DNA from: an uncultured Faecalibacterium sp.
Lineage (GTDB): Bacteria; Bacillota; Clostridia; Oscillospirales; Ruminococcaceae
DNA length: 40,193 nt
Assembly: GCA_944385995.1 (NCBI GenBank)
Contig: CALWZL010000016.1
Location: forward strand, 1-40,193
Reading direction: 5' to 3'
Notes under the pieces: generated by a model
What the model saw: only the letters and a program-made list of their open reading frames with translations
What the model was told of the DNA's origin: nothing
Database searches by the model: none
In this document: positions 20,447-40,193 of the stretch, piece by piece
Position numbering within the stretch: the stretch's first letter is position 1
How the letters are laid out: each line of letters starts with the position of its first letter
Position numbers and translations under genes: made by a program

Positions 20447-20465
20447 AGGTCACCGATCCTTTCTC

Positions 20466-20498
20466 ATAAAAGACCGCCGCCGCGGCGTCCACGGCGGC
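20466..20498 (-). terminator. Intra-operon attenuating hairpin between lipoprotein and permease genes
   Basis: On the minus strand GCCGCCGTGG pairs with CCGCGGCGGC (10 bp, one G-T) over a 3-base loop, followed by GGTCTTTT. It is placed between the binding protein and the permeases, where partial termination or 3' protection commonly makes the binding protein more abundant. Confidence 0.7.
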
Positions 20499-20523
20499 CG
20501 GCCTTCCAAAAGAGAGGCAGCTC

Positions 20524-21933: not shown

Positions 21934-21996
21934 AGTACGTACCTCCTCTGTGATCTCACGGCCCGGGCCTTGATGCCCGGCGCCCTTTGTGCCCTT

Positions 21997-22050
21997 ATTA
22001 TAGCGGAAAAAGTCCGGCGGAATATATAATGATTCCATAAAAAATATCAA
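21997..22050 (-). promoter_or_regulatory. Promoter region of the importer operon
   Basis: Two candidates on the minus strand: TTGATA (22050-22045), 18 bases, TATATT (22026-22021); and a perfect TATAAT (22002-21997) with a poor -35 box. A leader stem CCGGGC/GCCCGG follows. The gap to 22190 is the shared control region of the divergent phosphorylase operon. Confidence 0.5.
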
Positions 22051-22143
22051 ATCCTTGACAAGGTTTTGGATAGATCGCAAATAACGGTCATGATTCTGAC
22101 ACTTTTGCGCATGGTTTTGATTTTGGTTGAGGAGCAGTTTCCA

Positions 22144-22154
22144 TATAATATAAT
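22144..22154 (+). promoter_or_regulatory. -10 region of the phosphorylase operon
   Basis: Overlapping TATAAT boxes at 22144-22149 and 22149-22154, about 40 bases before the start codon. No -35 box sits at 16-18 bases (nearest TTGGTT at 22123 gives 15), so activator dependence is likely. Confidence 0.5.
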
Positions 22155-22190
22155 AGGAGTCGACATCTTACCATAGAAAGGGGAGGCATC

Positions 22191-24893: not shown

Positions 24894-24946
24894 AACAGGC
24901 AGGAATGATTTTTGATAAAGCCCAAAAGGCAGAAAGCAATACAGCT

Positions 24947-27358
24947 ATGAGATATGGATATTTTGACGACAAAGCCCGCGAATATGTAATCGACCGCCCC
25001 GACACCCCCGCCCCCTGGGTCAACTACCTGGGTTCGCCGGCCTACGGTGCCATCATTTCCAACAACGCCGGCGGCTACAGCTTTGAGCGGTCGGGCGCCA
25101 ACGGACGGATTCTCCGGTATGTGTTCAATCAGTTTGACCAGCCGGGCCGGTACATCTATCTGCGGGACGATGACAACGGGGATTTCTGGTCTGCTTCCTG
25201 GCAGCCGGTGGGCAAGGACCTGAAGGACTATCACAGCAAGTGCTGCCACGGCATGGGCTACACCCGGATGGAGGCCAGCTATGCCGGCATTGGATCGGAG
25301 GCGGTCTACTATGTGCCCCAGGGAAAATCCTATGAGGTGTGGGCCCTCACCGTCACCAACGATTCGGACCGGGTCCGCAGCCTGACGCTGACCGGCTATG
25401 CCGAGTTCACCAACCACAGCAACTACGAACAGGACCAGGTCAACCTCCAGTATTCCCTTTTCATCGGCCGGACCCTGTTTGAGGGCAATCGGATCACCCA
25501 GCAGATCCACGGCAATCTGGATGCCCTGGCCCAGGGGGAAGATGTGGACGACAAGACCGTTACCGAGCGGTTTTTCGGTTTGGCCGGCGCGCCGGTGTCC
25601 TCCTACTGCGGCGACAAGACCGCCTTTTTGGGTGCCTATCACGGCTATGGCAATCCCCAGGGTGTGGCATCCGGCGACCTGGGCAATGCAGAGAGCTACA
25701 ACGAGAACAGCTGCGGCGCCCTCTCCTGCAAGGTGAAGCTGGCCCCCGGCGAGAGCAAAACCGTTCTCTTTGTGGTGGGGATGAAGCCCTCGGCAGAGGC
25801 GGCGGCCATTCTGGCCGGCTACACCGACCCCGCCGCCCAGGTCCGGCAGGAAGTGGAAGCCCTCAAGGCTGAATGGTACGGCCGGTTCAGCCATCTCCAG
25901 GTCAACACGCCCGACCCCGCCTTCAATACCATGCTCAACACCTGGAACGCCTATAACTGCTTCATCACCTTTATCTGGTCCCGTGCAGCGTCTCTCATCT
26001 ACTGCGGCCTGCGAAACGGCTACGGCTACCGCGATACGGTGCAGGATATCCAGGGCATCATCCATCTGGAGCCGGAGATGGCCTGTGAGAAGATTCGCTT
26101 CATGCTGTCGGCCCAGGTGGACAACGGCGGCGGCCTGCCTCTGGTCAAGTTCACCCATAACCCTGGCCATGAGGATACCCCCGACGATCCCTCCTATGTG
26201 AAGGAAACCGGACATCCCGCCTACCGGGCCGACGATGCCCTGTGGCTGTTCCCCACTGTCTACAAATATGTGGCGGAAAGCGGCAACCTTGCCTTCCTGG
26301 ATGAGGTGATCCCCTTTGCCAACAAGGACGAGGGGACCGTCTATGAACACCTCAAGCGGGCGGTGGAATTCTCTCTGAATCATCTGGGCCCCCACGGCCT
26401 GCCCGCCGGCCTGTATGCCGACTGGAATGACTGCCTGCGGCTGGGCGCCAACGGTGAGTCCGCCTTTGTGGCCTTCCAGTTCTATTACGCCATGCGGATT
26501 CTGCGGCAGTTTGCCGCCCACCAGGGCGCGGACCAGGATGTCCGCTGGCTGGATGAAAAACTGGCCGAATATCAGGGCCGCATCCAGGAGCTGTGCTGGG
26601 ACGGCGACCGATTCATCCGCGGCTTCACCGAGGCAGGGGAGCGGATCGGCGAAGCCGCCGCACCCGAGGCCAATTTCTGGCTCAATCCCCAGAGCTGGGC
26701 TGTCATCAGCGGGCTTGCGGACCGGCACCAGGCCGACACCATCATGGAAGGGGTGAGCCAGCGGCTGAACACCGCTTACGGCGCCGTACTGATGGACCCG
26801 CCCTACCATGCCCACGCCTTTGACGGCGCGCTGGCCGTGATTTACAACCCCGGCACCAAGGAAAACGCCGGCATCTTCTCCCAGTCCCAGGGCTGGCTGA
26901 TTCTGGCCGAGGCGCTCTGCGGCCATGGCCAGCGGGCCTTCGGCTACTTCACCGAAAACGCCCCCGCCGCCCAGAATGACCGGGCCGAAATCCGCCGTCT
27001 GGAGCCCTACTGCTATGGCCAGTTCACCGAAGGGCCTGCCAGCAAACACTTTGGCCGTTCCCAGGTCCATTGGCTCACCGGTACCGCCTCCACCGTGATG
27101 GTGGGCTGTGTGGAGGGCATTTTGGGCCTGCGGCCGGATCTGGATGGCCTGCGTCTGGCACCGGCTGTCCCCAGCGAATGGGATGCTTTTTCCATCGAGA
27201 AGGACTTCCGGGGCCATCGCCTTCACATTCGGGTGGAAAACCCCGACCATCGTGAATCCGGCTGCCGCAGCCTGACCCTCAACGGCCAGACGCTGCCCGA
27301 AAACTACATCCCGGCGGCCCTGCTGAAGGATGAAAACGACATCGTCCTGACCCTGTAA
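24947..27358 (+). CDS. GH94 phosphorylase, cellobiose phosphorylase type
   Basis: The 803-residue enzyme starts MRYGYFDDKAREYVI and continues PWVNYLGS and AGGYSF, the typical opening of bacterial cellobiose phosphorylases (about 810 residues). The general acid is Asp495 in YADWNDCL, near the known position in the Cellvibrio enzyme. Expected reaction: cellobiose plus phosphate gives glucose 1-phosphate and glucose. The start was placed by family similarity; its ribosome-binding site is weak (AAAAGG about 18 bases upstream). In-frame ATGs at 24890 (overlapping the upstream stop as ATGA) and 24905 are alternatives that add 19 or 14 residues. It is co-transcribed with the laminaribiose-type enzyme. 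Confidence 0.87.
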   Translation: MRYGYFDDKAREYVIDRPDTPAPWVNYLGSPAYGAIISNNAGGYSFERSGANGRILRYVFNQFDQPGRYIYLRDDDNGDFWSASWQPVGKDLKDYHSKCCHGMGYTRMEASYAGIGSEAVYYVPQGKSYEVWALTVTNDSDRVRSLTLTGYAEFTNHSNYEQDQVNLQYSLFIGRTLFEGNRITQQIHGNLDALAQGEDVDDKTVTERFFGLAGAPVSSYCGDKTAFLGAYHGYGNPQGVASGDLGNAESYNENSCGALSCKVKLAPGESKTVLFVVGMKPSAEAAAILAGYTDPAAQVRQEVEALKAEWYGRFSHLQVNTPDPAFNTMLNTWNAYNCFITFIWSRAASLIYCGLRNGYGYRDTVQDIQGIIHLEPEMACEKIRFMLSAQVDNGGGLPLVKFTHNPGHEDTPDDPSYVKETGHPAYRADDALWLFPTVYKYVAESGNLAFLDEVIPFANKDEGTVYEHLKRAVEFSLNHLGPHGLPAGLYADWNDCLRLGANGESAFVAFQFYYAMRILRQFAAHQGADQDVRWLDEKLAEYQGRIQELCWDGDRFIRGFTEAGERIGEAAAPEANFWLNPQSWAVISGLADRHQADTIMEGVSQRLNTAYGAVLMDPPYHAHAFDGALAVIYNPGTKENAGIFSQSQGWLILAEALCGHGQRAFGYFTENAPAAQNDRAEIRRLEPYCYGQFTEGPASKHFGRSQVHWLTGTASTVMVGCVEGILGLRPDLDGLRLAPAVPSEWDAFSIEKDFRGHRLHIRVENPDHRESGCRSLTLNGQTLPENYIPAALLKDENDIVLTL

Positions 27359-27371
27359 ACCCGGGACAAAC

Positions 27372-27427
27372 AAACGCCGCAGGATACGGCCTTCTGAACA
27401 GGAGGCTTGTACCCTGCGGCGTTTTTT
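27372..27427 (+). terminator. Terminator of the phosphorylase operon
   Basis: AACGCCGCAGG (27373-27383) pairs with CCTGCGGCGTT (27413-27423) across a 29-base loop, then T-run. It also serves the convergent AraC gene region only weakly on the other strand. Confidence 0.8.
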
Positions 27428-27442
27428 GGCGTTGCAGTGCAT

Positions 27443-28240
27443 TCATAGGTTGGGGATGCTGCCGGATGGTGCGGTGCGTCCACTCCGGGAAGGCTCGGCG
27501 TTCCACTCCACCATATAATAGGTGTCGCGGTATTTCTTGGGGGTCATCCCCACCACTTCCCGGAACTGCTGAATGAAATGGCTCTGGGAAGAGAAAGACA
27601 GGCGGTTGGCAATCTCAATCATCGAGTCGTTGCTGAACCGCAGCAGATTCTTGGCCATATCAATTTTGCGGTTGCGGATGTAGGCGCTGACCGAGACGCC
27701 CGTCTCTTTCTTGAACAGACGGGATAAGTAACTGGCCGAAACTCCCAAAGCGTCCGCCAGATCTTTGATGGTGATCCGCTCTTTGATGTGGGCGTAGATG
27801 TATTCCTTGCAGGCGTTGATGTGCTTGGAATTGGTGTTGTTGTGGTGGTAGCGGCGCATCTTTTCGGTGTAGTCCATCACCATTTCGTCGTGCAGGCGTT
27901 TGACGGCTTCGGCGGTGTGGATGTCATCCAGCTTCTGGACATAAAAATCACTCAGCCGGAACGCCTGCTCCAGCTCCATGCCGTGCTGACGGCACATCCG
28001 CGTCACCATGGCCGCGGTGACCACAAAGTGGTATTTCAAGTTGGTAATGGGGTCTTTGGACAAAACGCCGACTCCAACCGTATCCATAAAGCGGCCCTGT
28101 TCGCAATTTTTTCGGACAGCATCCACATCGCCGTTGGCCACGGCACGGTAGAACAAAAATTCCTCGCTGGGTTCACGGTGCTCCATCTCATCGATGTCAT
28201 CGTTAGCCTCGATTACAAGCCATTCATCTTTGTAGCTCAT
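27443..28240 (-). CDS. AraC family transcriptional regulator of the beta-glucan locus
   Basis: The 265-residue protein has an AraC-type double helix-turn-helix in the last 110 residues (ITIKDLADALGVSASYLSRLFKKETG and SMIEIANRLSFSSQSHFIQQFREVVGMTPKKYR). The N-terminal part is helical, not a cupin: EEFLFYRAVANGDVDAVRK, then ITNLKYHFVVTAAMVTRMCRQHGMELEQAFRLSDFYVQ. This occurs in many Firmicutes regulators of sugar loci. The ATG at 28240 follows GGGAG; the longer open frame upstream runs over its promoter. It probably activates the phosphorylase and importer promoters, which lack -35 boxes (inference). Confidence 0.92.
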   Translation of the reverse strand: MSYKDEWLVIEANDDIDEMEHREPSEEFLFYRAVANGDVDAVRKNCEQGRFMDTVGVGVLSKDPITNLKYHFVVTAAMVTRMCRQHGMELEQAFRLSDFYVQKLDDIHTAEAVKRLHDEMVMDYTEKMRRYHHNNTNSKHINACKEYIYAHIKERITIKDLADALGVSASYLSRLFKKETGVSVSAYIRNRKIDMAKNLLRFSNDSMIEIANRLSFSSQSHFIQQFREVVGMTPKKYRDTYYMVEWNAEPSRSGRTAPSGSIPNL

Positions 28241-28336
28241 TGTTGCATCTCCCTGAACCGCCAGTCTCCGCTCCGTCAAATAAAGTGCGCATCTGCATGC
28301 AATCCCCGCATACCAGCGACAATATCCATTAGATAT

Positions 28337-28365: not shown

Positions 28366-28439
28366 GCGTCTGCACCGGGAGCGACTTCAGATCGACTTCC
28401 AGGGAGAGGACACAAAAGGGTCCGCTGGCCGAAAAACGC

Positions 28440-28480
28440 AAAAAATCCGAACTTTCTCTTTTCAGAAAAAGTTCGGATTT
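28440..28480 (-). terminator. Terminator overlapping the 3' end of the recombinase gene
   Basis: AAATCCGAACTT (28443-28454) and AAGTTCGGATTT (28469-28480) form a perfect 12-bp stem that includes the last codons and stop of the recombinase. Six T follow on the minus strand. A third AAATCCGAAC copy lies at 28502-28511. Confidence 0.8.
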
Positions 28481-29958
28481 CCTGGTGCAGTTAAGCAATC
28501 CAAATCCGAACCAATTTCCCTTGTCACAGCCTCTGTAGCTTGGGCAAAGGAAACGGTCTCCGTCCCTTCCTTGTAGTTGAAGGTAATGAGCATTTTGTCA
28601 TCGTACAGGTAGATGGCGTTGATAAAAGTGTCAATCAGCGCCTGACGCTGCTCCTTTTGAGAAAAGTCCAGCTTGCGGAACCGGGTCAGCCAGAACCGTA
28701 CAAAGTCCTCGCTGAGCTTGGGCTTTGCCAGCCGCTCTTCGGCGATCTTGGCTTCCAGGTCTTTCTTCTGGGCTTCGAGGGCTTCCAAACGCTCTTTGGT
28801 GGAGCTGGTCAGGATGCCGGCCTGGATGGCGTTGAGCATATTCTGGATGCCAGCTTCTGTGTCCCGAAGCTGCTTCTCATAAAGTGGCAGGTTGGTATTT
28901 TCTTTGTTTTGCAGCTCCATTACACTGGAAACAATGGAATCAATCACGGTATCGTCCATAATAAGAGCTTTGGTTTTTGCAATCACCAAATCTTCCAGCC
29001 ACTGCTTGCGGACGGTTTTCTTTTGGCAGGACTTTCTCTTTTTAACCGTCGCGCATTTATAGTACCGGTGCACGTCCCCGGAACGGCTGGTACCGCTCTC
29101 CCCGAACATCAAGGAACCGCAGTAACCGCAGAACAGTTTGGTAGTCAGAAGATAGTCATCCTCTGCCTTGCGCCGGGCAGGGGCCTTTTTATTTTTGGCC
29201 ATCTTGATTTGTACATCCTCGAATAGTTCCGGTGACACAATCGGTGGAATGGCATCTGGAATCAAGATATCCCGGTATTTCAGTTCACCTATATAGCGGC
29301 GATTCTTCAGCATATGCTGGACTGTATTATAGCTCATGGGACCGCCGCGAGGATTTTTAACCTGGTGTTCATTCAGCCAGTCCCGTACTTCGGTCATGGT
29401 AGCGCCTTCGTTATACATCCTGAAAGCTTCGGCAATGAGCGGGGCTGTGAAAGGATCGGTTTGAAAACGCTGGTTCTCATCAATCCGATAACCAACCGGA
29501 ACAGCCCCACCGGTAAACTTGCCCTTTAGCGCATTTTCTGTCATGCCGCGAATGACTTTCTCCGAGAGGTCTGCTGAATAGTATTCAGCATAGCCTTCCA
29601 GTACGGATTCCAGAATGATGCCCTCTGGTCCGTCTGAGATGATTTCAGTCGCCGACATCAGCTTGACCCCGTTCTTTTTCAGCTGGGTCTTATAACGAGC
29701 GCTGTCATAGCGGTTCCGGGCAAAGCGATCCAGTTTCCAAACCAGAACCATATCAAACAGCTTTCGCTCGCTGTCCTTAATCATCTGCTGAAACTGGGGC
29801 CGATTGTCCGTTTTGGCCGAGATGGCCCGGTCGATGTAGTGCTTGACCACCGTGATACCGTTCTTCTCAGCATATGCGGTGCACTCGCGAATCTGGCCTT
29901 CGATGGATTCCTCGCGCTGGTTGTCACTGGAATAGCGGGCGTAGATAACGGCGGTCAT
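28462..29958 (-). CDS. Large serine recombinase (integrase of the mobile element)
   Basis: The 498-residue protein has a resolvase domain (residues 1-140; catalytic Ser10 in YARYSSDNQ, VWKLDRFARNRYD), a Recombinase domain (about 155-255) and a zinc ribbon (Cys277, Cys280, Cys302, Cys311). A long coiled coil follows (about 345-425), then a short C-terminal domain. This is the TndX/TnpX-like plan of integrases that move conjugative and mobilisable elements between short attachment sites. The start at 29958 has AGGAGG 9 bases upstream. It reads outward towards the AraC gene, as is usual for an integrase at the end of its element. A likely promoter lies at about 30010-30045 (TTGCAA, 17 bases, TATATC). 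Confidence 0.94.
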   Translation of the reverse strand: MTAVIYARYSSDNQREESIEGQIRECTAYAEKNGITVVKHYIDRAISAKTDNRPQFQQMIKDSERKLFDMVLVWKLDRFARNRYDSARYKTQLKKNGVKLMSATEIISDGPEGIILESVLEGYAEYYSADLSEKVIRGMTENALKGKFTGGAVPVGYRIDENQRFQTDPFTAPLIAEAFRMYNEGATMTEVRDWLNEHQVKNPRGGPMSYNTVQHMLKNRRYIGELKYRDILIPDAIPPIVSPELFEDVQIKMAKNKKAPARRKAEDDYLLTTKLFCGYCGSLMFGESGTSRSGDVHRYYKCATVKKRKSCQKKTVRKQWLEDLVIAKTKALIMDDTVIDSIVSSVMELQNKENTNLPLYEKQLRDTEAGIQNMLNAIQAGILTSSTKERLEALEAQKKDLEAKIAEERLAKPKLSEDFVRFWLTRFRKLDFSQKEQRQALIDTFINAIYLYDDKMLITFNYKEGTETVSFAQATEAVTREIGSDLDCLTAPGNPNFF

Positions 29959-30060
29959 GGCGGGGCCTCCTTTCATTCTCTGTATGTCGATGACGCAGCA
30001 CATTTTCGTATAAGATATAACATGTTTCACGCAATATTGCAAGGCTTTTGAGCGCCGCTT

Positions 30061-30084
30061 GGTGGTGTTCTTTTTGAGCACCAC
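30061..30084. repeat. Hairpin between the recombinase and GH42 genes
   Basis: GGTGGTGTTC and GAGCACCACT form a stem of 8-9 bp (one G-T) around TTTTT, in the 275-base gap between divergent genes. The role is unknown. A perfect GCAATATTGC palindrome sits nearby at 30031-30040. Confidence 0.45.
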
Positions 30085-30131
30085 TGCAAAAGTACACAAA
30101 ACTACCATGCAAAGTTCGGCACTCTGCAATC

Positions 30132-30199
30132 TTGCTTTCCCGGCGCAGAGCTGTTATACTGGGGCAAATAAGTTGCGCAAATGGCGCAAAATGCGCAAC
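30132..30199 (+). promoter_or_regulatory. Promoter and LacI-type operators of the GH42 gene
   Basis: TTGCTT (30132-30137), 17 bases, TATACT (30155-30160). Just downstream lie GTTGCGCAA (30172-30180), GGCGCAA (30183-30189) and TGCGCAAC (30192-30199), giving TTGCGC-N5-GCGCAA. A bound repressor here would block transcription. The same motif recurs at the two other promoters of this locus. Confidence 0.75.
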
Positions 30200-30233
30200 C
30201 AATCTAATACAGAGCAACGCGGAGGCAACAACG

Positions 30234-32225
30234 ATGCAGACAACAAAGCTCCTTTATGGCGGAGACTATAACCCTGAACAATGGCTGGACCGCCCCGACA
30301 TCCTGGCAGAGGACCTTGACCTGATGCAAAAGGCCCACGTGAACGTGGTGTCGCTGGGGATGTTCTCCTGGTCGCTGCTCGAGCCGGAAGAGGGGGTCTA
30401 TCACCTCGACTGGCTGGCCGACATCATCCATAATCTGTACCAGCGTGGTATCTCGACCATCCTGGCCACCCCCAGCGCGGCCCGGCCAGCCTGGATGGCC
30501 TACAAGTACCCCGAGGTGCGCCGGGTGCGTGCCGACCGCGTGCGGGAGCTGTACAACCGCCGGCAGAACTACTGCTATACCTCTCCCGTCTACAGAGAGA
30601 AGGTGCGCGCCATCGACCAGAAACTGGCCGAGCGCTTCGGGCACGACTCCGCCGTCATCCTCTGGCACATCTCCAACGAGATGGGGGGCGAATGCCATTG
30701 CCCGCTCTGTCAGGCTGAGTTCCGCCGCTGGCTGCAGCGCCGTTACGGCACCTTGGACGCCCTGAATAAAGCCTGGAACGCCCGCTTCTGGAGCCACGAC
30801 TACACCGACTGGGACCAGATCGAAAGCCCCGCCCCCCAGGGCGAGAATGCCGTCCAGGGTCTTACTCTCGACTGGAAGCGTTTCGTCAGCAGCCGGCACA
30901 TCGACTTTTTCAAGTTCGAGCAGGACTGTGTGCGCCAGCTTACGCCCAACGCCAGGTTCACCACCAACATGATGTATCGCTTCCACGACATCGATTATTT
31001 CCAGATGGCGAAGGAAGTGGACGTCGTCAGCTGGGACTGCTACCCCACCTGGCACAAATCCACCGAGACGGTGGAGCAGACCGCCCTTGACACCGCCATG
31101 ATGCACGATCTGTTCTACTCCCTCAAGGGCAAACCCTTCCTTTTGATGGAGTCTACCCCTACCTGCGCCAACTGGCAGCCCATTAGCAAACAGAAAAAGC
31201 CGGGCATCTCGATGCTGGCGGCTTTGCAGACGGTGGCGCACGGGGCGGACAGCGTCTGTTATTTCCAGTGGCGGGCCAGCCGCGGCGCAGAGGAAAAATT
31301 CCACGGCGCGGTGATCGGTCATGATGGCCGCAGCGACAGCCGCAGCTTCCGGGAGGCGGCCGGCATCGGCGCGGCGCTGGAAGAACTGGCCGCAGCCGCC
31401 GGAACCGCCCGGCCCCGGCAGGCCGCCATCCTCCACGACTGGGACAACATGTGGGCCATCGAGGGGTCGTCGGGTCCCCGCAACGCCGGCATGGGCTATT
31501 GGAAGGAGCTGGCCCTCCACTACAACGCCCTTTCCCGAGCGGGCATCGCGGTGGATTTTGTCGATCAGACGTGCAGCATCGAAGGCTACGGGCTGGTGGT
31601 CCTGCCGATGGCCTATCTGCTGCGGGAGAGCTTTGCCCGCGCCGTCTGCGACTTTGCCCAAAAAGGCGGCACGGTGGTGGTCACCTATTGGAGCGGCGTG
31701 GTGGACGAGAGCGACCTCTGCCGCCTGGGCGATACCCCCTACGGCCTGACCAAGCTGCTGGGCCTGCGCCGCGCCGAGATCGACGGGATGTACGACGGCG
31801 AGACCCGCCGCTGCGTCCTGGCCTCCGACCGCCTGCAGGAAGTCACCCACGCCTCCACCCTCTGCGAGGTGGCTGCCCTCGACGAGGCCGACCCCGCCGA
31901 GCCTCTCGTCCTCTACGGCGAGGACTACTTTGCCGGCGCGCCGGCGGTAGCCCGTCACCGCTATGGCGGGGGCCGGGCCTACTACCTGGCCAGCCGTTTC
32001 GAGCCGGCTTTCTACGACGCTTTCTATCAGGCGGTCGCCGGCAAAGCGGGGCTTGTCAGCTGCCGGCCGGCCGCCCTGCCCGAGGGTGTGCTGGCCGTCC
32101 GCCGTGGGGAACTGCTCTTTTTGCAGAACTGCAATACCATCCCCGCTCTGCTGCCGGGCGGCGACGAGCTGCCCGGCTACGGCACCGCCGTCTACAAAGC
32201 CGATGGCATGGTACGGGTACTGTGA
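30234..32225 (+). CDS. GH42 beta-galactosidase
   Basis: The 663-residue enzyme has a typical GH42 length and no signal peptide. The opening LLYGGDYNPEQW is characteristic. The acid/base Glu149 lies in WHISNEMGGECHC and the nucleophile Glu306 in PFLLMESTP. Four cysteines, Cys114, Cys154, Cys156 and Cys159, match the zinc site of the family. GH42 enzymes hydrolyse terminal beta-galactose, preferring beta-1,4/1,3/1,6-galacto-oligosaccharides from galactan or milk sugars over lactose. With the adjoining importer it resembles the Bacillus GanA-GanSPQ system. GGAGG precedes the ATG by 8 bases. Codon use is CGC-rich, unlike the left half of the window. Confidence 0.95.
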   Translation: MQTTKLLYGGDYNPEQWLDRPDILAEDLDLMQKAHVNVVSLGMFSWSLLEPEEGVYHLDWLADIIHNLYQRGISTILATPSAARPAWMAYKYPEVRRVRADRVRELYNRRQNYCYTSPVYREKVRAIDQKLAERFGHDSAVILWHISNEMGGECHCPLCQAEFRRWLQRRYGTLDALNKAWNARFWSHDYTDWDQIESPAPQGENAVQGLTLDWKRFVSSRHIDFFKFEQDCVRQLTPNARFTTNMMYRFHDIDYFQMAKEVDVVSWDCYPTWHKSTETVEQTALDTAMMHDLFYSLKGKPFLLMESTPTCANWQPISKQKKPGISMLAALQTVAHGADSVCYFQWRASRGAEEKFHGAVIGHDGRSDSRSFREAAGIGAALEELAAAAGTARPRQAAILHDWDNMWAIEGSSGPRNAGMGYWKELALHYNALSRAGIAVDFVDQTCSIEGYGLVVLPMAYLLRESFARAVCDFAQKGGTVVVTYWSGVVDESDLCRLGDTPYGLTKLLGLRRAEIDGMYDGETRRCVLASDRLQEVTHASTLCEVAALDEADPAEPLVLYGEDYFAGAPAVARHRYGGGRAYYLASRFEPAFYDAFYQAVAGKAGLVSCRPAALPEGVLAVRRGELLFLQNCNTIPALLPGGDELPGYGTAVYKADGMVRVL

Positions 32226-32232
32226 GGGGAAA

Positions 32233-32300
32233 TTGCGCACAGTCCCTTGACAAAGCGCCGTCTTGGCTGGTATGCTGAAGAAAAGCGCAACCGATTGCGC
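32233..32300 (+). promoter_or_regulatory. Promoter and operators of the lacI-type gene
   Basis: TTGACA (32247-32252), 18 bases, TATGCT (32271-32276). TTGCGCA (32233-32239) lies upstream, and the perfect inverted repeat GCGCAA-CCGA-TTGCGC (32285-32300) lies just after the start site. This points to self-repression. Confidence 0.75.
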
Positions 32301-32319
32301 ACACGAGGGAGGGCACGTC

Positions 32320-33345
32320 ATGCCGGCAGAAAACCAACCGACCAAGAAGATCTCCATCGACGAGGTCGCAAAAGCCCTGGGGGTGTCCAAGACCACCGTT
32401 TCCCGTGCCCTCTCGGGCAAGGGCCGCATCAGCGAGGCTACCCGCGGCCGGGTGCGAGACTACATCGCCCAGGCCGGGGCTGAACCGGCGGTGCGCGCCC
32501 AGCCCGCGGACCGCGAGACCCACAACCTGACCATGGTCATCCCCAGCGACTTCGTCCACCTGGACCTGCCCTTTCTGCGCAAGTGCATGGGAGGCATCTG
32601 CACGGCGGCAGCCCAGCGGGGGTACGACCTGCTGCTCTGCTATGTCTCCGGGGCCGACACCAGCCAACTGGAGCGCCAGCTCGACTGCCACAAAATGGAC
32701 GGGGTGATCCTCTCCCGCACCATCCAGAACGATCCCTGTGTCGAACTTCTGCGCCGCCACAAGATGCCCTTTGTCGCCATCGGACGGACCGAGGACCCCG
32801 CCATCCCCCAAGTAGACAACGACCAGGCCGCCGCCAGTCAGGAAATGACCCGGCTGCTGCTTCAGCTTGGCCTGCGGCGGATCGCTCTGCTCACCGGCAG
32901 CCCCAGCTACTACGTCAACCAGGACCGTGCCAAAGGGTACTTTGACGCCCTGGCCGAGCTGGGCATCCAGCCCGACCCGGCCCTCGTCCGCACCGGCATC
33001 GAGAGCGACGCCCAGCGGATCGACGCGCTGGACGCAGTGCTGGAACGACGCCCCGACTGCATCCTCTGCGGGGACGACCGGCTGGCTTTCGATGTGTCGC
33101 TGGAGCTGCAGGCCCGGCGCATCCGGGTGCCGGACTACATACGTCTGGCCAGCCTCTACGACAGCGAGCTGACCGCCGGCCTCAACCCCGCCATTTCGGC
33201 GGTCCACTTCGATGCGGTGGCCCTGGGCGGGGCTGCCTGCCGGATGCTGCTGGACCTGATGGCCGGCAAAGCCGCCGCCCGTCCCCTGGTGATGGGGCAT
33301 CAGGTCGTCCTGCGGGACTCGACCAAGAGCCTGCCCCGGCGCTAA
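32320..33345 (+). CDS. LacI family repressor of the galactoside locus
   Basis: The 341-residue protein has an N-terminal LacI helix-turn-helix (KKISIDEVAKALGVSKTTVSRALSGKGRISEATR, about 9-43) and a periplasmic-binding-protein-like sugar-sensing domain to residue 340. The middle DGVILSRTIQNDP and IALLTGSPSYYVNQDRAKGY are family-typical. The inducer is probably a galactoside or a breakdown product (inference). GAGGGAGGG lies before the ATG. It sits between the GH42 and importer genes, with matching operators at all three promoters. Confidence 0.94.
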   Translation: MPAENQPTKKISIDEVAKALGVSKTTVSRALSGKGRISEATRGRVRDYIAQAGAEPAVRAQPADRETHNLTMVIPSDFVHLDLPFLRKCMGGICTAAAQRGYDLLLCYVSGADTSQLERQLDCHKMDGVILSRTIQNDPCVELLRRHKMPFVAIGRTEDPAIPQVDNDQAAASQEMTRLLLQLGLRRIALLTGSPSYYVNQDRAKGYFDALAELGIQPDPALVRTGIESDAQRIDALDAVLERRPDCILCGDDRLAFDVSLELQARRIRVPDYIRLASLYDSELTAGLNPAISAVHFDAVALGGAACRMLLDLMAGKAAARPLVMGHQVVLRDSTKSLPRR

Positions 33346-33364
33346 ACCCTTTGACCTGCTTTTG

Positions 33365-33397
33365 AGAGCCGTCTGCCGCGCGCAGGCGGCTCTTTTT
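33365..33397 (+). terminator. Terminator of the lacI-type gene
   Basis: AGAGCCG-T-CTGC pairs with GCAG-G-CGGCTCT, followed by TTTTT. Confidence 0.88.
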
Positions 33398-33434
33398 CTG
33401 CCCCGGGTGCGGAATGGACCGGCAGCTCAAAATC

Positions 33435-33602
33435 GTTGCGCATAAATTGCGCGGCCAAACTCAAAAAAGCGGCCCATTATAAGTCAGAATGACTATATTT
33501 TTATTACTATTATAGGTAAATCTGTGCATTGACACTCGAGAAGATTTGCGGTATTCTATAGTTGCGCAAGAGGAACCAGAAAATTGCGCAAAATGTGCGC
33601 AA
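33435..33602 (+). promoter_or_regulatory. Promoter and multiple LacI-type operators of the importer operon
   Basis: TTGACA (33529-33534), 17 bases, TATTCT (33552-33557). Operator copies: GTTGCGCA (33435) and TTGCGC (33447) upstream, GTTGCGCAA (33561) at the start site, and the 19-base inverted repeat TTGCGCA-AAATG-TGCGCAA (33584-33602) downstream. Separate upstream and downstream clusters would allow DNA looping. Confidence 0.78.
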
Positions 33603-33658
33603 CGGCAGTTTCTCAGGAACGGACATTTCATCCAGACACAAGAAGGAGAAGATGCACT

Positions 33659-34951
33659 ATGAAAAAGCTGATTTCCCGCCGTCAATTCCTCGCGGCAATG
33701 GGCGCTGCGGCTGCGGCCGGCGCGCTGACTGCCTGCGGCGGCTCGTCCAACACTGCTTCCAGCAGCGCGGCCCCCGCTTCCTCTGCTGCGGGCGAAGCCG
33801 CCTCCGCCGCTGAGAGCTGGGGCGATGTCGAGCTGACCATGTGGGGCGCTGAGGAAGATCAGGGTATGCTGCGCGAGATGGCCGACGCCTTCATCGAGGC
33901 CAATGCCGACAAGGGCAACATCACCATCAACATCGGCGCCTGCTCCGAGTCCGACGCCAAGGACAACATCCTGGTGGACCCCACTGCCGCGGCCGACGTG
34001 TTCGCCTTTGCGGACGACCAGCTGAACGAGCTGGTGGCCGCCGGCGCTCTGCAGGAGGTGCTGCTCAACCCCGACGAGATCAAGAGCCGCAACCTGGAGG
34101 GTTCGGTCGAGGCTGCCAGCATGGACGGCAAGCTGTACGCCTACCCCATGACCGCCGACAACGGCTACTTCCTCTACTATGACGGCAGCGTCATCACCGC
34201 CGAGGACGCCCAGAGCGTGGACGGCATCCTGGCCGCCGCGGCAGCCGCCGGCCGCACCTTCGATATGACCCTGAACGACGGCTGGTATATTTACAGCTTC
34301 TTCGCAGGGGCGGGCCTGACCGCTACCCTGGCCGACGACGGCGTCAACACCGTCTGCAACTGGAACGAGGAGCCGGGCGCGTCGGTCGCGCAGGCGGTGC
34401 TGGACATCGCTTCGAACGACGCCTTCCGCAACGCGCCCGACGCCGACATCGTCTCGGGCATCGCGGACGGCTCGGTCTGCGCCGCCATCAGCGGCACCTG
34501 GAACGCCATCACCGCCGAGGATGCCTGGGGCGACAACTACCAGGCCACCAAGCTGCCCACCTTCACGATGGACGGCGAGCAGGTGCAGATGGGTTCCTTC
34601 TCGGGCTACAAGCTGGTGGGCGTCAACCCCCACAGCGCCAACGTGGGCGTGGCCATGATGCTGGCCGACTTCATCACCAACGAGGACAACCAGCTCAAGC
34701 GCTTCAACGACCGCAACCTCGGCCCCTCCAACATCAACGTCAACGCCTCGGAGGAGGTGCAGTCCGCCCCGGCCATCGCCGCCCTGGCTATGCAGAGCGA
34801 CTTCTCCGACCTGCAGCGCGTGGGAGCCAACTACTGGGATCCCGCCGCCAGCCTGGGCCAGATCCTGGCCTCCGGCAATACCCAGGGCAAGACCACCCAG
34901 CAGCTGGTGGACGACGCCGTGGCAGGCATCACCGCGCCGGTGGCTCAGTAA
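33659..34951 (+). CDS. Sugar-binding lipoprotein of the galactoside importer
   Basis: The 430-residue solute-binding protein has the N-terminus MKKLISRRQFLAAMG (twin Arg at 7-8) with lipobox LTAC and Cys26 as the lipid site. An Ala/Ser-rich linker follows, then a MalE-like fold (VELTMWGAEEDQGMLREMADAF, GSFSGYKLVGV). By position it corresponds to GanS/CycB of the galacto-oligosaccharide importer. AAGGAG lies about 11 bases before the ATG. It is the first gene of a three-gene operon and the target of the strongest operator cluster. Confidence 0.93.
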   Translation: MKKLISRRQFLAAMGAAAAAGALTACGGSSNTASSSAAPASSAAGEAASAAESWGDVELTMWGAEEDQGMLREMADAFIEANADKGNITINIGACSESDAKDNILVDPTAAADVFAFADDQLNELVAAGALQEVLLNPDEIKSRNLEGSVEAASMDGKLYAYPMTADNGYFLYYDGSVITAEDAQSVDGILAAAAAAGRTFDMTLNDGWYIYSFFAGAGLTATLADDGVNTVCNWNEEPGASVAQAVLDIASNDAFRNAPDADIVSGIADGSVCAAISGTWNAITAEDAWGDNYQATKLPTFTMDGEQVQMGSFSGYKLVGVNPHSANVGVAMMLADFITNEDNQLKRFNDRNLGPSNINVNASEEVQSAPAIAALAMQSDFSDLQRVGANYWDPAASLGQILASGNTQGKTTQQLVDDAVAGITAPVAQ

Positions 34952-35081
34952 TTTCACCCGCTAACTCCCGTCTCCTTCCTTGTGCCCCGCCGGCGCTGCC
35001 CATACGCGGCAAAAGACAAACCCGGCAGCGTCCGGCCTGGGGGCGCGGGGAGACGAAACCTTGCAGAGAGGAGCGATCTTT

Positions 35082-36536
35082 GTGGCACAAACCGTGCTCA
35101 TTCAGCCGCCGCTGCGTGCAGGCGGCAAGGAGCCAAACTTCCTCCAGCGGTTCGGCCATGCCTTTGCGCACGGCGACATCTTCACCAAGCTGTCCTTTGT
35201 GATCTGGGGCCTGGGCTACATCGGCCACGGCCAGCTCATCAAAGCGCTGCTGGTCACCCTGGTGCAGGGATTGGGGCTTTATTACCTGGCAGTGGCGGGC
35301 GTGCCCAACCTGGCCAAGTTCGGCACCCTGGGCACCGTCCAGATGGAGATGGTCTTTAACCCCATCACCCTCAAAAACGAGGTCAACGATTACGACAACT
35401 CCTTCGCCATCCTGCTGCTCAGCGTCATCGCCATGGTGGTCATCGCGGCCATGCTGGCTGCGGCGATGGGGGTGGTGATGTCCAATTTCCACCTGCAGCA
35501 GATCCGCGCCGCAGGCAAAAAGACCAATAACTTCGTACAGGACATCCATATGTTCCTGAACGAAAAGTTCTATGTCACCCTGCTGACCCTGCCGGTGCTG
35601 GGCGTGGTGGTGTTCACCATCGTGCCTCTGTTCATCCTGATCGCAGTGGCCTTCACCAATTACGACCAGCAGCATATGCCGCCCAACGCCCTGTTCACCT
35701 GGGTGGGACTGACCAATTTCTTCACCCTGTTCGGAGGCGGGCAGTCTCTTTCGCTGACCTTCGGCTACGCTTTCGGCAAGATCCTGGTCTGGACTCTGGT
35801 ATGGGCCTTCTTCGCCACCTTCACCACCTTTTTCGGCGGCGTCTTTCTGGCGATGCTCATCAATGACAAAAAGACCAAGTTCCCCAAGCTGTGGCGGACG
35901 CTGTTCATGGTCACCATCGCGGTGCCGCAGTTCGTCACGCTGCTGCTGGTGCGCAACTTCTTCAGCGACAACGGCATCTTCAACACCATGATGTCCAACA
36001 TCGGGGTGACCGACTTTTTGCACACCATCGGCATCCTCAGCCCCGGCATGGACCACATCCCCTTCCTGACCGAGGCTTCCTGGGCCAAAGTGATGATCAT
36101 CCTCATCAATATCTGGGTGGGCGTGCCGTACCAGATGCTGATCGCCACCGGCGTTTTGATGAACATCCCCAGCGATATGCTGGAGGCCGCCCGCATCGAC
36201 GGCGCAAGCCCCTGGCAGCAGTTCATCCACATCAAGATGCCCTACCTGCTCAGCGTGCAGGGGCCGGCCCTCGTCACCGACTTTGTCAAGAACGTCAACA
36301 ACTTCAACGTCATCTACCTGCTGACCCAGGACGTCTACGTCACCACCGACCAGGCGATGGCCTCGTCCAGCGCCAAAGAGGTCGATCTGCTGGTCACCTG
36401 GCTGTTCCGTCTGACGCAGGAGCAGTACAACTACAAGATGGCTGCGGTCATCGGCATCATGGTGTTCATTGTCTGCGCGGTGTTCACGGTGGTGTGCTTC
36501 CGGTTCATCAATAAGAAGGAGGCGGCTTTCTCATGA
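35082..36536 (+). CDS. Sugar ABC transporter permease (MalF/GanP type)
   Basis: The 484-residue permease is longer than usual because of an N-terminal extension of about 150 residues with extra membrane segments, as in MalF and Bacillus GanP/MdxF. The EAA loop reads EAARIDGASPWQQFIHIKMPYLL. The GTG start at 35082 was chosen because GAGGAG lies 8 bases upstream and no in-frame ATG has a ribosome-binding site. The stop overlaps the next gene by ATGA (36533-36536). Confidence 0.92.
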   Translation: MAQTVLIQPPLRAGGKEPNFLQRFGHAFAHGDIFTKLSFVIWGLGYIGHGQLIKALLVTLVQGLGLYYLAVAGVPNLAKFGTLGTVQMEMVFNPITLKNEVNDYDNSFAILLLSVIAMVVIAAMLAAAMGVVMSNFHLQQIRAAGKKTNNFVQDIHMFLNEKFYVTLLTLPVLGVVVFTIVPLFILIAVAFTNYDQQHMPPNALFTWVGLTNFFTLFGGGQSLSLTFGYAFGKILVWTLVWAFFATFTTFFGGVFLAMLINDKKTKFPKLWRTLFMVTIAVPQFVTLLLVRNFFSDNGIFNTMMSNIGVTDFLHTIGILSPGMDHIPFLTEASWAKVMIILINIWVGVPYQMLIATGVLMNIPSDMLEAARIDGASPWQQFIHIKMPYLLSVQGPALVTDFVKNVNNFNVIYLLTQDVYVTTDQAMASSSAKEVDLLVTWLFRLTQEQYNYKMAAVIGIMVFIVCAVFTVVCFRFINKKEAAFS

Positions 36537-37426
36537 CGCAGGCAAGTACAATGGATACCCAAAAGCAGCTGCGGATGGGACGCATCCGGCGCGGCGTGGA
36601 CGGCGCGGTCCGCCATCTGGTGCTGATCGGCCTTTCGGTGGTGTGGCTGGTGCCTATCCTCTGGCTGCTGGTCACCAGCCTGTCCACCTACGCGGGCATC
36701 AATTTCCGCACCTTCTTCCCCGATCACTACACCTTCCAGAACTACATCGACATCCTGTTCCACTCTGACTCGGTGGCGCAGTTCCCCCGGTGGTTCATGA
36801 ACACCTTTGTGGTGGCCTGTTTCAACTGCGTGATCTCCACCGCCTTTGTGGTGATGGTAGCCTACGCCATGAGCTGCTGCAAGTTCAAGAGCCGCCGCCT
36901 GCTGCAAAACCTGTCGGTGACGGTCAACCTGTTCCCCGGCGTGCTGGCCATGATCGCAGTTTATTTCGTCCTGCGCTACCTCAACCTGACCAACTCCTAC
37001 GCCGGCCTGATCATGGTCTATGCCGGCTCGTCCGGCCTTGGGTACCTAATCTGCAAGGGCTTCTTTGACACTGTACCGGTCTCCCTGCGGGAGGCCGCCA
37101 AGCTGGACGGCGCATCGGAAGCGCAGACCTTCTTCCATGTCGTCCTGCCCATGTCCAAGCCCATCCTGGTCTACACCGTCATCAACTCCTTCATGACCCC
37201 CTGGACCGACTTCGTGATGGCCAAGATGATCCTGAACTCGGGCATCAGCGCCGACTGGACCGTCTCGATTGGCCTGTACAACATGCTCTCGCGCACGCTG
37301 GTCAACGATTACTTTGCCTTGTTCTGTGCAGGCAGCGTGCTGGTCTCCATCCCCATCTCGGTGCTGTTCATCATCATGCAGAAGTTCTACGTTGCAGGAA
37401 TCACCTCCGGCGCAGACAAAGGTTAA
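36533..37426 (+). CDS. Sugar ABC transporter permease (MalG/GanQ type)
   Basis: The 297-residue CUT1 permease has six membrane segments, EAA loop EAAKLDGASEAQTFFHVVLPMSKP and C-terminal FYVAGITSGADKG, which is very like MalG/GanQ. It is coupled to the upstream permease by a 4-base overlap. As in the other importer of this window, no ATPase gene is present, so a shared MsmX-like ATPase encoded elsewhere is expected. Confidence 0.94.
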   Translation: MTQASTMDTQKQLRMGRIRRGVDGAVRHLVLIGLSVVWLVPILWLLVTSLSTYAGINFRTFFPDHYTFQNYIDILFHSDSVAQFPRWFMNTFVVACFNCVISTAFVVMVAYAMSCCKFKSRRLLQNLSVTVNLFPGVLAMIAVYFVLRYLNLTNSYAGLIMVYAGSSGLGYLICKGFFDTVPVSLREAAKLDGASEAQTFFHVVLPMSKPILVYTVINSFMTPWTDFVMAKMILNSGISADWTVSIGLYNMLSRTLVNDYFALFCAGSVLVSIPISVLFIIMQKFYVAGITSGADKG

Positions 37427-37458
37427 ACCTTCTTCTTTCTTCTTCATCTCCCCACACG

Positions 37459-37496
37459 CCAAAGCCCCGGGCCGCCTGCAACAAGGCTGCCCAGGG
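37459..37496 (+). terminator. Probable terminator of the importer operon
   Basis: AAGCCC-C-GGGC pairs with GCCC-A-GGGCTT over a 16-base loop, followed by ACATTTT. The T-run is short. A second stem, TTTTTGT/ACAAAAA (37516-37522 with 37532-37538), follows and may back it up in both directions. Confidence 0.5.
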
Positions 37497-37539
37497 CTTA
37501 CATTTTGGGGATAAGTTTTTGTACTTCCCCGACAAAAAG

Positions 37540-38030
37540 TAACGTCAATCATTGTTATCTCGCCCAGAATTTCAAGTTCTCACTTGACGCCCCGCTTTGT
37601 TCATGGTATCCTCTATCCCACACCAGCTGCTTTAGTACGCTAAACAGCCGTCCCGCAGCCACACCGAACCATTTTGCCGCCGTTCACCTACGACAAAATC
37701 CTTTGGTCCCCTGCGGGGCGGCTTTCTTATATTCCGAGAGAATTTGCAGCCGGGCGACCGGCCTGCAATTCTTCATACCCGCACTTTGAAAACTGCATGA
37801 GCCGCCTGGATCTGGATACCGTGCCATGACCCCGCGCAAAACGCGGGCGAGCCGGACAACGCCGCTGCAACACAGGGGCAGGAACGCAGATTCGGTACAA
37901 GCGGCGACTCCCGCAAATAGGAGACACTTCTATTGGTACCTGCACTCCCAGCTTTGGAAACCAAAATCCAATTTGAAATCTGTATTTTCCATTCGGACAG
38001 AAAAAACGATAAGCAAGTATCGACCTGTGG
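37540..38030. other. Non-coding stretch between cargo and mobilisation genes
   Basis: Several short open frames exist here, but none has a ribosome-binding site, codon bias or recognisable motif. Short GC hairpins are visible (CCCCTGCGGGG near 37709, CCGCG-CAAAA-CGCGG near 37832). Base composition is lower in GC than the cargo. It probably belongs to the backbone of the element. Confidence 0.4.
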
Positions 38031-38031
38031 C

Positions 38032-38105
38032 CACAATTTCAAAAATTGAAATTGTGTCTCACTGACCGGTCGTACTTGTTGGGGAGTGCCTTCCCCAAAC
38101 CCTGC
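38032..38105. other. Candidate origin of transfer (oriT)
   Basis: The perfect 11-bp inverted repeat CACAATTTCAA-AAA-TTGAAATTGTG (38032-38056) is followed by GGGGA/TCCCC (38081-38085 with 38092-38096), and then ACCCTG-C (38099-38105). The last is one mismatch from the MOBP nick consensus ATCCTG-C. It lies directly before the mobC-like and relaxase genes, the usual place for oriT. Predicted nick between 38104 and 38105. Confidence 0.45.
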
Positions 38106-38185
38106 TTTTGTTTTGAACCGTTTGCACTTGTTCGATCTATGCTCTGTGCGGCCCTTCCTAGTGCCGCCTAAAGGATTGGAGGCTG

Positions 38186-38626
38186 ATGCTCGCCAAGAAC
38201 GTCGAAAAAATTCTTCCGACCAATCACAATGACAACCCCAACAACCGCACCCACATCATCAAATTTCGCGTGACCGAAAAAGAAAAACTCACCCTCGAAC
38301 TCTGCTGCAAACGGCTCAACATCAGCATGTCAACCCTCATCCGTCAATCTCTGCTGGGGAAACCTGTCCAGCACACCGTTCTTGTTACAGGCAGCGGAGA
38401 GGATGCCCTGAACATTCTCTCTGACCTGCTGGGACAATGCGGCAAAATCGGCGGCAACCTCAACCAACTGGCCCGGCACTTCAACACCGGCGGCCGGGAC
38501 ACAGAGCAGCTTCGCGCTCAGCTTTTGGCAGAGCTGTCTGCCCTCACTTCCTTCCGGCTGGACGCCGAGAAAACGATCGGAGAACTGTATGGCAACCATC
38601 AAGCATACAAGCTCGAAGAACTCTGA
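38186..38626 (+). CDS. MobC-like relaxosome accessory protein
   Basis: The 146-residue protein has an N-terminal ribbon-helix-helix-like region (HIIKFRVTEKEKLTLELCCKRLNISMSTLIRQSLLG) and the MobC motif LLGQCGKIGGNLNQLARHFNTGG. Such proteins bind oriT and help the relaxase nick. GGAGG lies just 3-4 bases before the ATG (AAAGGA further up gives better spacing). It overlaps the relaxase gene by 38 bases. Confidence 0.88.
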   Translation: MLAKNVEKILPTNHNDNPNNRTHIIKFRVTEKEKLTLELCCKRLNISMSTLIRQSLLGKPVQHTVLVTGSGEDALNILSDLLGQCGKIGGNLNQLARHFNTGGRDTEQLRAQLLAELSALTSFRLDAEKTIGELYGNHQAYKLEEL

Positions 38627-40163
38627 CCTCTCGGCGGCGGAGCGCTACCTCACCTTCCAGCACAATGAGTATACCGGCCTGCCCATTTTGGACGAGCATG
38701 GCCGACCCAAACTCCGGGAGGCGTATCTGCTGGACACGCTGGAATGTGGGGAAAATACCTTCGCCATGGCCTGCCTGCTGGCGAACCGAAAGTACGGCAA
38801 GAATGGCAATCCCAGCGATGTAAAAACGCACCATTATATCATCAGCTTTGACCCCCGGGACGCAGCTGACAACGGCCTGACCCTGGAAAAGGCGCAAGCC
38901 CTCGGCCTGCAATTCTGCAAGGAGAACTTTCCGGGCCATCCGGCCATTGTCTGTGCTCACCCGGACGGCCACAATGGAGCTGGAAATATCCACGTTCACA
39001 TTGTCATTGGCAGCCTGCGGATCCGCGAAGTCGAGCGCCAGCCCCATATGGAGAAACCCTGTGACTGGCAGGAGGGCTGCAAGCACCGCTGTACGGCGGC
39101 CATGCTGCGGCACCTCCGCGCCGAAGTCATGGAGCTTTGCCAGAATGCTGGCCTCTACCAAATCGACCTGCTGAAAGGTTCCGGCGACCGCATCACCGAA
39201 CGGGAGTATTGGGCGCAGCGTCGCGGCCAACGCCGCCTCGACTACGCCAACGCCAAGGACGCTGCTTCCGGCCTGCCCATCCGGCAAACCAAATACGAGA
39301 CCGAGAAAGCTGCCCTGCGCAAAAACATCCGTTCCGTTCTGCGAAAGGCGACCAGTTTGGAGGACTTCTCCGCTCAGCTCTTGCAGGAGCATGGCATTGC
39401 TCTCACTGAGAGCCGCGGCCGGTTTAGTTACCGCACCGCTGATCGGACAAACCCCATCACCTCCCGCAAACTAGGCGATGATTTTTCCAAAGAGCAGGTT
39501 TTGATTGCCCTTGCCGAAAATGCCGAACGCCAGAAGACCGCCGCCCTCCGTCGTACTGACCCGAATCCCGATAAGGTCAGCCGCCTAATTGACATTCAGG
39601 CCAAGCTGGCCTCAGGCAAAGGTGCTGGTTACGAGCGCTGGGCCAAGGTGTTTAATCTCAAGCAGTTGTCCAAATCGGTGGCACTTTTGTCGGAGCACGG
39701 CGTAAGCACCGAGGCCGAGTTGGCGCAGCGTATCAACGAACTTCAATCCCAGTACAGTGAAGTGCTCGAGGTGGTCAAAGACCTGGAAACTCGCATCGAC
39801 GAAAACCGGGAACTGAGCCGCCACGTTTCGGCCTACCTCCAAAACCAAAAGATCGCCCAGCGGTCTAAGCACGCCGGGAATCCCGCCGAGTATCAGGAAA
39901 CACACCGCGCCCAGCTGACAGCTTATCAGGCGGCAGCCGCCTATTTTAAGGCCCACAACATCCAAAAACTGCCCAGCCTGAAACAGCTGAAAGCCGAGCG
40001 CGAGGAATTGATTTCTGAAAAGGCCCAGTTCTACCAAAAATACCGCGAAGCGCATAAAGCCTGGCTAGACCTTGCCACCGCACAGCAAAACCTGGAGGCC
40101 CTGGACCGTGCAGAGAGCCGCCGCGAGATGACGAGAGGAGGGTTGCATGAGCTGGACAAATGA
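38589..40163 (+). CDS. MobA/VirD2-type relaxase
   Basis: The 524-residue protein has a relaxase domain in about the first 260 residues. The metal-binding HUH-type motif is GNIHVHIVIG (His135, His137) with His124/His128 in CAHPDGHNG, and His81-His82 in KTHHYIISFDP. The likely nucleophile is an N-terminal Tyr such as Tyr20 in AAERYLTF. The C-terminal half is helical with coiled coils. It should nick oriT and pilot the strand into a recipient, so the element can transfer itself or be mobilised. Its ATG overlaps the mobC-like gene. The end overlaps the next gene by 17 bases. Confidence 0.92.
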   Translation: MATIKHTSSKNSDLSAAERYLTFQHNEYTGLPILDEHGRPKLREAYLLDTLECGENTFAMACLLANRKYGKNGNPSDVKTHHYIISFDPRDAADNGLTLEKAQALGLQFCKENFPGHPAIVCAHPDGHNGAGNIHVHIVIGSLRIREVERQPHMEKPCDWQEGCKHRCTAAMLRHLRAEVMELCQNAGLYQIDLLKGSGDRITEREYWAQRRGQRRLDYANAKDAASGLPIRQTKYETEKAALRKNIRSVLRKATSLEDFSAQLLQEHGIALTESRGRFSYRTADRTNPITSRKLGDDFSKEQVLIALAENAERQKTAALRRTDPNPDKVSRLIDIQAKLASGKGAGYERWAKVFNLKQLSKSVALLSEHGVSTEAELAQRINELQSQYSEVLEVVKDLETRIDENRELSRHVSAYLQNQKIAQRSKHAGNPAEYQETHRAQLTAYQAAAAYFKAHNIQKLPSLKQLKAEREELISEKAQFYQKYREAHKAWLDLATAQQNLEALDRAESRREMTRGGLHELDK

Positions 40164-40193
40164 GGATGTCCGCGATGAAATCTATGAGCAGGA
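40147..40193 (+). CDS. Start of an unidentified gene in the mobilisation operon (partial)
   Basis: GAGGAGGG followed 5 bases later by ATG opens a frame reading MSWTNEDVRDEIYEQ to the window end. The perfect ribosome-binding site and 17-base overlap with the relaxase gene support a real, coupled gene. Only 15 residues are visible, too few to name it. Confidence 0.7.
   Translation, partial: MSWTNEDVRDEIYEQ

What the first reader, a model, noticed from the sequence alone, without database searches (positions are those of the whole stretch)
28440..40193. Galactoside utilisation locus carried on an integrative mobile element
A large serine recombinase on the left and an oriT-like region, MobC-like protein and relaxase on the right enclose a complete GH42, LacI and GanSPQ-like importer set. 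The left flank keeps an intact AraC promoter, so the insertion is clean. This would be transfer of a diet or milk-sugar trait between gut bacteria as a single unit.
Basis: partly seen in the sequence, partly recalled or inferred. Interest (0 to 1): 0.7.

Follow-up and report, generated by a model that had tools for sequence, protein, structure and literature searches.

The report
Mobile tRNA-docking element carrying galactoside operon
A gut bacterium of the Faecalibacterium group carries a sugar-use operon as the swappable load of a mobile DNA element that appears to dock behind a tRNA gene, and nearly the same load sits in a related genus, so this food-use trait seems to move between bacteria.

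Summary
Window 28483-40193 is the left and middle part of an integrative mobilizable element; the contig ends before its right end. It has a large serine recombinase, a five-gene operon (GH42 beta-galactosidase, LacI, binding protein, two permeases; no ATPase), an oriT-like region, a NikA/MobC-like protein and a relaxase. The boundary is GCACCA at 28483-28488, read as the 3' end of tRNA-Leu(CAG). Candidatus Gemmiger faecigallinarum carries the same 11.3 kb order at another site, breaking at the same base: operon 97.2%, mob genes 90.4%, recombinase 80.3% identical, one host stretch 80%. So load and recombinase have partly separate histories. Sixteen elements with this order hold 11 load types. 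In 11 of 11 tabulated relatives with a tRNA at the far end, the tRNA is whole and followed by an element-side hairpin; 7 of those 11 had relaxase hits. Milk sugar is unsupported. In the passages I saw, serine integrases disrupt protein genes and tyrosine integrases use tRNA ends: a new variant of a known kind.

The parts
27443..28243 (-). AraC-family regulator, left neighbour, not part of the element
   Evidence: Pfam HTH_18 9.1e-25; relatives beside tRNA-Leu in G010 and beside the recombinase in G022
28412..28488 (.). 77 bases identical to the end of contig C71, which continues into tRNA-Leu(CAG)
   Evidence: hairpin at 28446-28477
28483..28488 (-). left attachment core GCACCA, element boundary
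   Evidence: alignment to L166 breaks at 28483; same junction with another flank in G022; table of ends
28462..29958 (-). large serine recombinase, 498 aa; last codons read out of flanking DNA
   Evidence: Pfam Resolvase, Recombinase, Zn_ribbon_recom; 25 of 31 genus genomes have a match at E<=1e-60, own genome included
30084..37537 (+). load cassette: operon with its upstream region and terminator-like end
   Evidence: colinear block shared with G004/L164 at 95.6% while its neighbours differ; left junction alignment
30234..32225 (+). GH42 beta-galactosidase, 663 aa
   Evidence: nearest solved structures 5e9a and 4oif, E 1.3e-210 and 2.2e-192
32320..33345 (+). LacI-family regulator
33659..34951 (+). 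sugar-binding protein (SBP_bac_8)
   Evidence: NCBIfam GanS 94.9 bits against cut-off 700
35070..36536 (+). permease 1 (best NCBIfam model MalF, below cut-off)
36533..37426 (+). permease 2 (best NCBIfam model MalG, below cut-off)
37653..38107 (+). oriT-like region; densest conservation at about 38011-38106
   Evidence: alignment of four loci, matches in G011:C95, G023 and G004
38186..38626 (+). NikA/MobC-like accessory mobilisation protein
   Evidence: Pfam NikA-like 2.4e-15
38589..40163 (+). relaxase (MobA/VirD2 domain)
   Evidence: Pfam 7.9e-11; 21 of 31 genus genomes have a match at E<=1e-20, own genome included
40147..40193 (+). probable first codons of a P4/D5-type primase gene, cut by the contig end
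   Evidence: position; similar start to the L179 and L189 proteins; L179 protein: DUF5906, primase_Cterm 103.4 bits against cut-off 108.7

Best explanation
This is an integrative mobilizable element. The serine recombinase inserts the circular form at the GCACCA 3' end of tRNA-Leu(CAG); at the far end the element brings its own hairpin behind the whole tRNA. The relaxase and its partner would nick at the oriT-like site and travel through a helper's conjugation machine. Between recombinase and oriT lies a load slot; here it holds an operon for taking up and cleaving small beta-galactosides, related to chromosomal operons of sister genera. Shown by comparison: left boundary, gene order, load exchange, sharing with another genus. 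Inferred: the tRNA-Leu right junction of this copy, excision, helper-driven transfer, substrate, direction of capture.
For: Same 28483-39761 stretch in Ca. Gemmiger faecigallinarum at another site, 93.5% over 11.3 kb, breaking at 28483. Same junction in G022 with another flank; no GH42 match there at E<=1e-100. C71 joins the flank sequence to tRNA-Leu(CAG). G010, with no recombinase match at E<=1e-60, has tRNA-Leu(CAG) 560 bp upstream of its AraC gene with no element between. 16 elements of the same order, 11 load types. 11 of 11 tabulated relatives with a far-end tRNA: whole tRNA, then hairpin; L076 shows the same. G030b and G029a, with the same load, share the first 65 right-end bases at tRNA-Leu and tRNA-Arg. 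Operon 97.2% identical to Gemmiger, one host stretch 80%.
Against: The right end is missing here. Operon, mob genes and recombinase differ in divergence, so the unit is a mosaic. The mob module also occurs with tyrosine integrases. 4 of the 11 tabulated relatives (three tRNA-Tyr ones and G007) gave no relaxase hit. In 12 of 24 oriented recombinase loci no full MobC-relaxase pair was found. G010's tRNA-Leu has other upstream genes than C71, so it is not a strict empty copy of this site. The C71 tail could also be a right junction with the same hairpin. G022's contig starts inside the recombinase, so its load is unseen. Key genomes are metagenome assemblies; host divergence rests on short stretches.
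Confidence: 0.87

Rival explanations
1. Two elements side by side: the serine recombinase with the operon is one, and the mob genes from about 37500 belong to a tyrosine-integrase element whose integrase lies beyond the contig end.
For: Relatives G002, G001:C7, G006:C27 and G017 carry relaxase and primase beside a tyrosine integrase, three of the four at a tRNA gene.
Against: In L166 recombinase, operon and mob genes lie together as here at another site; 16 recombinase-load-mob elements; G007:C26 has a 91% match to the L179 primase, a serine recombinase and a far-end tRNA-Leu, with no tyrosine-integrase hit in the two fetched stretches, though no relaxase hit either.
Confidence: 0.08
2. A decayed island: the operon is now fixed chromosomal DNA and the mobile genes are no longer active.
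For: G004 keeps the operon at 95.6% beside a truncated recombinase fragment and an oriT block; G023 keeps an oriT with a mobC start broken by early stops.
Against: In the window recombinase, NikA-like protein and relaxase are open and full length.
Confidence: 0.05

Closest known systems
Integrative and mobilizable elements (IMEs), review PMC5704250 (passages seen)
   Same: own integrase, own relaxase and oriT, cargo
   Different: in the passages I saw, site-specific serine-recombinase IMEs disrupt dispensable genes and the tRNA 3'-end entries carry tyrosine integrases; here a serine recombinase uses tRNA 3' ends and leaves the tRNA whole
Recombinase- and relaxase-rich islands of Faecalibacterium prausnitzii, PMC6295017 (passages seen)
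   Same: same genus; recombinase and relaxase families with up to 8 copies per genome, islands flanked by them, ICE/IME named
   Different: the passages I saw give no insertion site, boundary, load slot or galactoside operon
Fructoselysine PTS operon of F. prausnitzii, PMC12136445 (passages seen)
   Same: patchy sugar operon, also in Gemmiger, suggested to be mobile
   Different: the passages I saw name no element, attachment site or recombinase; another operon
GanSPQAB galactan utilisation of Bacillus subtilis (recalled, from no call)
   Same: GH42, class of importer, LacI-type regulator
   Different: no GH53 galactanase among the operon's genes; binding protein far below the GanS cut-off

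Membership tests
Integrative and mobilizable element | encodes its own integration recombinase | tested here: met
   498 aa serine recombinase with the three expected domains, boundary at its 3' end; activity not tested
Integrative and mobilizable element | relaxase and oriT of its own | tested here: met
   relaxase and NikA-like domains; oriT-like block conserved in four loci; nicking not tested
Integrative and mobilizable element | no complete conjugation machine | tested here: inconclusive
   the window ends inside the element; in the complete relative L174, 10 ORFs were scanned (3, 7): none matched a mating-pore family, 3 of the 10 matched nothing, other ORFs were not scanned
Integrative and mobilizable element | excises and transfers | not testable with these tools
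   needs cells
tRNA-targeted genomic island | insertion at a tRNA 3' end with the tRNA kept whole | tested here: met
   11 of 11 tabulated relatives, chosen because a far-end tRNA was found; for the window itself only the left core is seen
tRNA-targeted genomic island | tyrosine integrase (usual, not the only kind) | tested here: not met
   the window's recombinase is of the serine type
GanSPQAB galactan system | GanS-type binding protein | tested here: not met
   94.9 bits against cut-off 700
GanSPQAB galactan system | GH42 enzyme | tested here: met

The most novel reading that the evidence does not exclude
A family of serine-recombinase elements in the Faecalibacterium group acts as a shared shuttle: it docks at the 3' ends of several tRNA genes, supplies the tRNA with a new terminator, and has a fixed slot between recombinase and oriT where sugar operons, defence systems and transporters are swapped between backbones and across genera. 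In this window two generations may be stacked: the galactoside element in front of an older, decayed one whose load is the neighbouring beta-glucan locus.
Probability: 0.5. Interest if true: 0.68.

Novelty: new variant of a known kind. Interest (0 to 1): 0.52.

Why it matters
Faecalibacterium genomes are known to be plastic and rich in recombinases and relaxases, but the passages I saw delimit no element. Here one end, the docking sequence and the load slot can be read, which gives a testable mechanism for the patchy gain of sugar operons in these gut bacteria. It also points to a serine recombinase family that uses several tRNA 3' ends and leaves the tRNA whole, which the passages seen describe for tyrosine integrases.

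Tried and rejected
Native terminator or element end? The hairpin TCCGAAC..GTTCGGA occurs 2-7 times per genome in six genomes searched. In the stretches I looked at it nearly always follows a tRNA gene, with and without elements; it is the right-end sequence in 11 of 11 tabulated relatives, yet it also stays at matching tRNA-Leu loci of G000, G022 and G023. So the C71 overlap can mean an unoccupied site in a mixed population (my preference, about two in three) or the right junction with the same hairpin. Another contig overlap is 65 bases, so I dropped an argument from one fixed assembly word length.

A clean empty-site comparison at the C42 tRNA-Leu failed: upstream is shared with G007 and G004, downstream gave no match. 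Plasmids: no match. Phages: one record, 4% of the query at 75.5%. Viral contigs: none for GH42, three relaxases at 27-29%. Primase in the own genome: no match at E<=1e-15, so the rest of the element was not found. No structure prediction was run.

Full report
What is there. The window is one whole contig (C16, 40193 bp) of a 114-contig genome, 87.7% complete. Of its genus 31 genomes were searched; G004 holds an 8879-base contig with the GH42 match that equals DWWN01000027.1, Candidatus Faecalibacterium faecigallinarum, so I place the window in the Faecalibacterium group. The operon encodes no ATPase; importers of this class often share one from elsewhere (recalled).

The left boundary. The reverse strand reads recombinase end, GGTTCGGATTTGGATTGCTTAACT, GCACCA, flank. 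L166 (Candidatus Gemmiger faecigallinarum, DWVD01000043.1) aligns with window 28483-39761 and breaks at 28483. G022 has the same junction with its own flank beside the same AraC gene; its contig begins inside the recombinase. Of 30 recombinase loci, a part of the list, 26 end in TTCGGAT..ACCA and 25 of those run into a hairpin with TTTT. Of the four misses, L026 shows the same kind of end, L037 and L040 end in TGCA, and L045 (42% identical) has no such end.

The target. Contig C71 of the same genome ends in 77 bases identical to window 28412-28488 and continues into tRNA-Leu(CAG). In G010, with no recombinase match at E<=1e-60, tRNA-Leu(CAG) lies 560 bp upstream of its AraC gene, with two hairpins between; the genes upstream of that tRNA do not match those of C71 or C42. 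Six of these and five others make the table: 11 of 11 have a tRNA (Leu, Arg, Lys or Tyr) whole to CACCA followed by the hairpin; the seventh, L076, looks the same. Seven of the 11 had MobC and relaxase hits; the three tRNA-Tyr ones and G007 had a primase hit but no relaxase hit. G030b and G029a carry the same load and share the first 65 right-end bases at tRNA-Leu and tRNA-Arg, so that hairpin travels with the element. That it serves the tRNA as terminator is inference.

The load slot. I put together 16 elements with recombinase, load and MobC-like gene in this order: 12 of the 24 loci, plus the window, L166, G022:C22 and G001:C56. The other 12 loci had no full MobC-relaxase pair in the stretch and were left out. 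Grouping loads by protein-level similarity over more than 30% of the load gives 11 types, with G029b (31% shared) counted apart. Loads include a PTS/GH1/YdjC set (G001), a type I restriction system (G022:C22), a riboflavin-type transporter component with a GntR/aminotransferase regulator (G011:C95) and the GH42 operon (window and L166). G004 has the operon at 95.6% over 30084-37537 beside a truncated recombinase fragment and an oriT block.

History. Against L166 the recombinase gene is 80.3% identical over 1497 bases, the operon block 97.2% over 7450, the mob genes 90.4% over 1576 (bins). One host stretch matches that genome at 80% over 1855 bases; another match, 72% over 1362 bases, may be a paralogue. 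So operon and mob genes are closer than the host stretch and the recombinase is not. Transfer between genera plus exchange at the recombinase end explains this; movement of one unchanged unit does not. In a draw of 396 family genomes 8 matched the LacI-to-permease DNA at E<=1e-100, the own one included; G004 is not among the 8, so the draw or its first look misses some. Of the seven other loci, all in two other genera, three show all five genes in order (L214, L215, L216); two have GH42 only at 43% beyond the permeases; two start too late to tell. In 7 of 7 I saw no recombinase, MobC, relaxase, primase or tyrosine-integrase hit above 38% over 60 residues; some stretches were short. These genera are a likely source of the operon.

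Function. GH42 is clear. The binding protein hits GanS at 94.9 bits against 700; among solved structures its best hit is a CUT1 binding protein, with maltose-type ones below. I propose small beta-galactosides of plant origin, with low certainty. Nothing points to milk; the names of the relatives suggest poultry (my reading of the names).

Known work. I saw passages found by term in PMC6295017, PMC12136445, PMC8824198, PMC12884075, PMC5357655, PMC5704250, PMC10654092 and PMC8092301, and search listings only for all others. They report many recombinases and relaxases in F. prausnitzii, a patchy fructoselysine operon also in Gemmiger, and serine integrases mostly in protein genes against tyrosine integrases at tRNA genes. 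The listings showed no paper on this element family that I recognised; most subscription papers are not held, so this is weak evidence.

Recounts changed these: recombinase identity given for the whole gene; 10 ORFs of L174 scanned; relaxase hits in 7 of the 11 tabulated elements; five-gene order in 3 of 7 outside loci; the one phage match added. Confidence went from 0.88 to 0.87 because four tabulated elements lack relaxase hits.

Noticed in passing
window 12734-28243; L056 7013-8974: The neighbouring locus (GH16, GH3, two permeases, two GH94, AraC) may be the load of an older decayed element: in G023 the same AraC gene lies behind tRNA-Tyr, the hairpin, a broken mobC start and an oriT.
   Followed up: partly
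L190, L178, L176, L193: Relaxase and primase like the window's kind occur with a tyrosine integrase, three of four next to a tRNA gene; MobC hits in three.
   Followed up: partly
L031, L036 recombinase flanks; L190 after tRNA-Arg: The flank after two serine recombinases (G002, G018) reads like the sequence behind tRNA-Arg at a tyrosine-integrase element, which hints at stacked insertions of both kinds.
   Followed up: no
L069, L070 first bases: Two copies in G030 share 145 bases of flank after the core (all that was compared), with a partial tRNA-Leu-like fragment inside (my reading).
   Followed up: no
L168 6140-9260: In Ca. Gemmiger stercorigallinarum a 79% GH42 gene lies beside two other large serine recombinases.
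   Followed up: partly
L037, L040 recombinase ends: These copies end in TGCA without the final CCA, which may place the crossover before CCA.
   Followed up: no
L066 and L189 (G007:C26): An element about 20 kb long has a serine recombinase and a primase but no relaxase hit; an MFS transporter gene lies near that place.
   Followed up: partly
window 1-76: The contig starts in a tRNA-like sequence (valine by my reading; the tRNA tool listed none) that shares 65 bases with contig C87.
   Followed up: no
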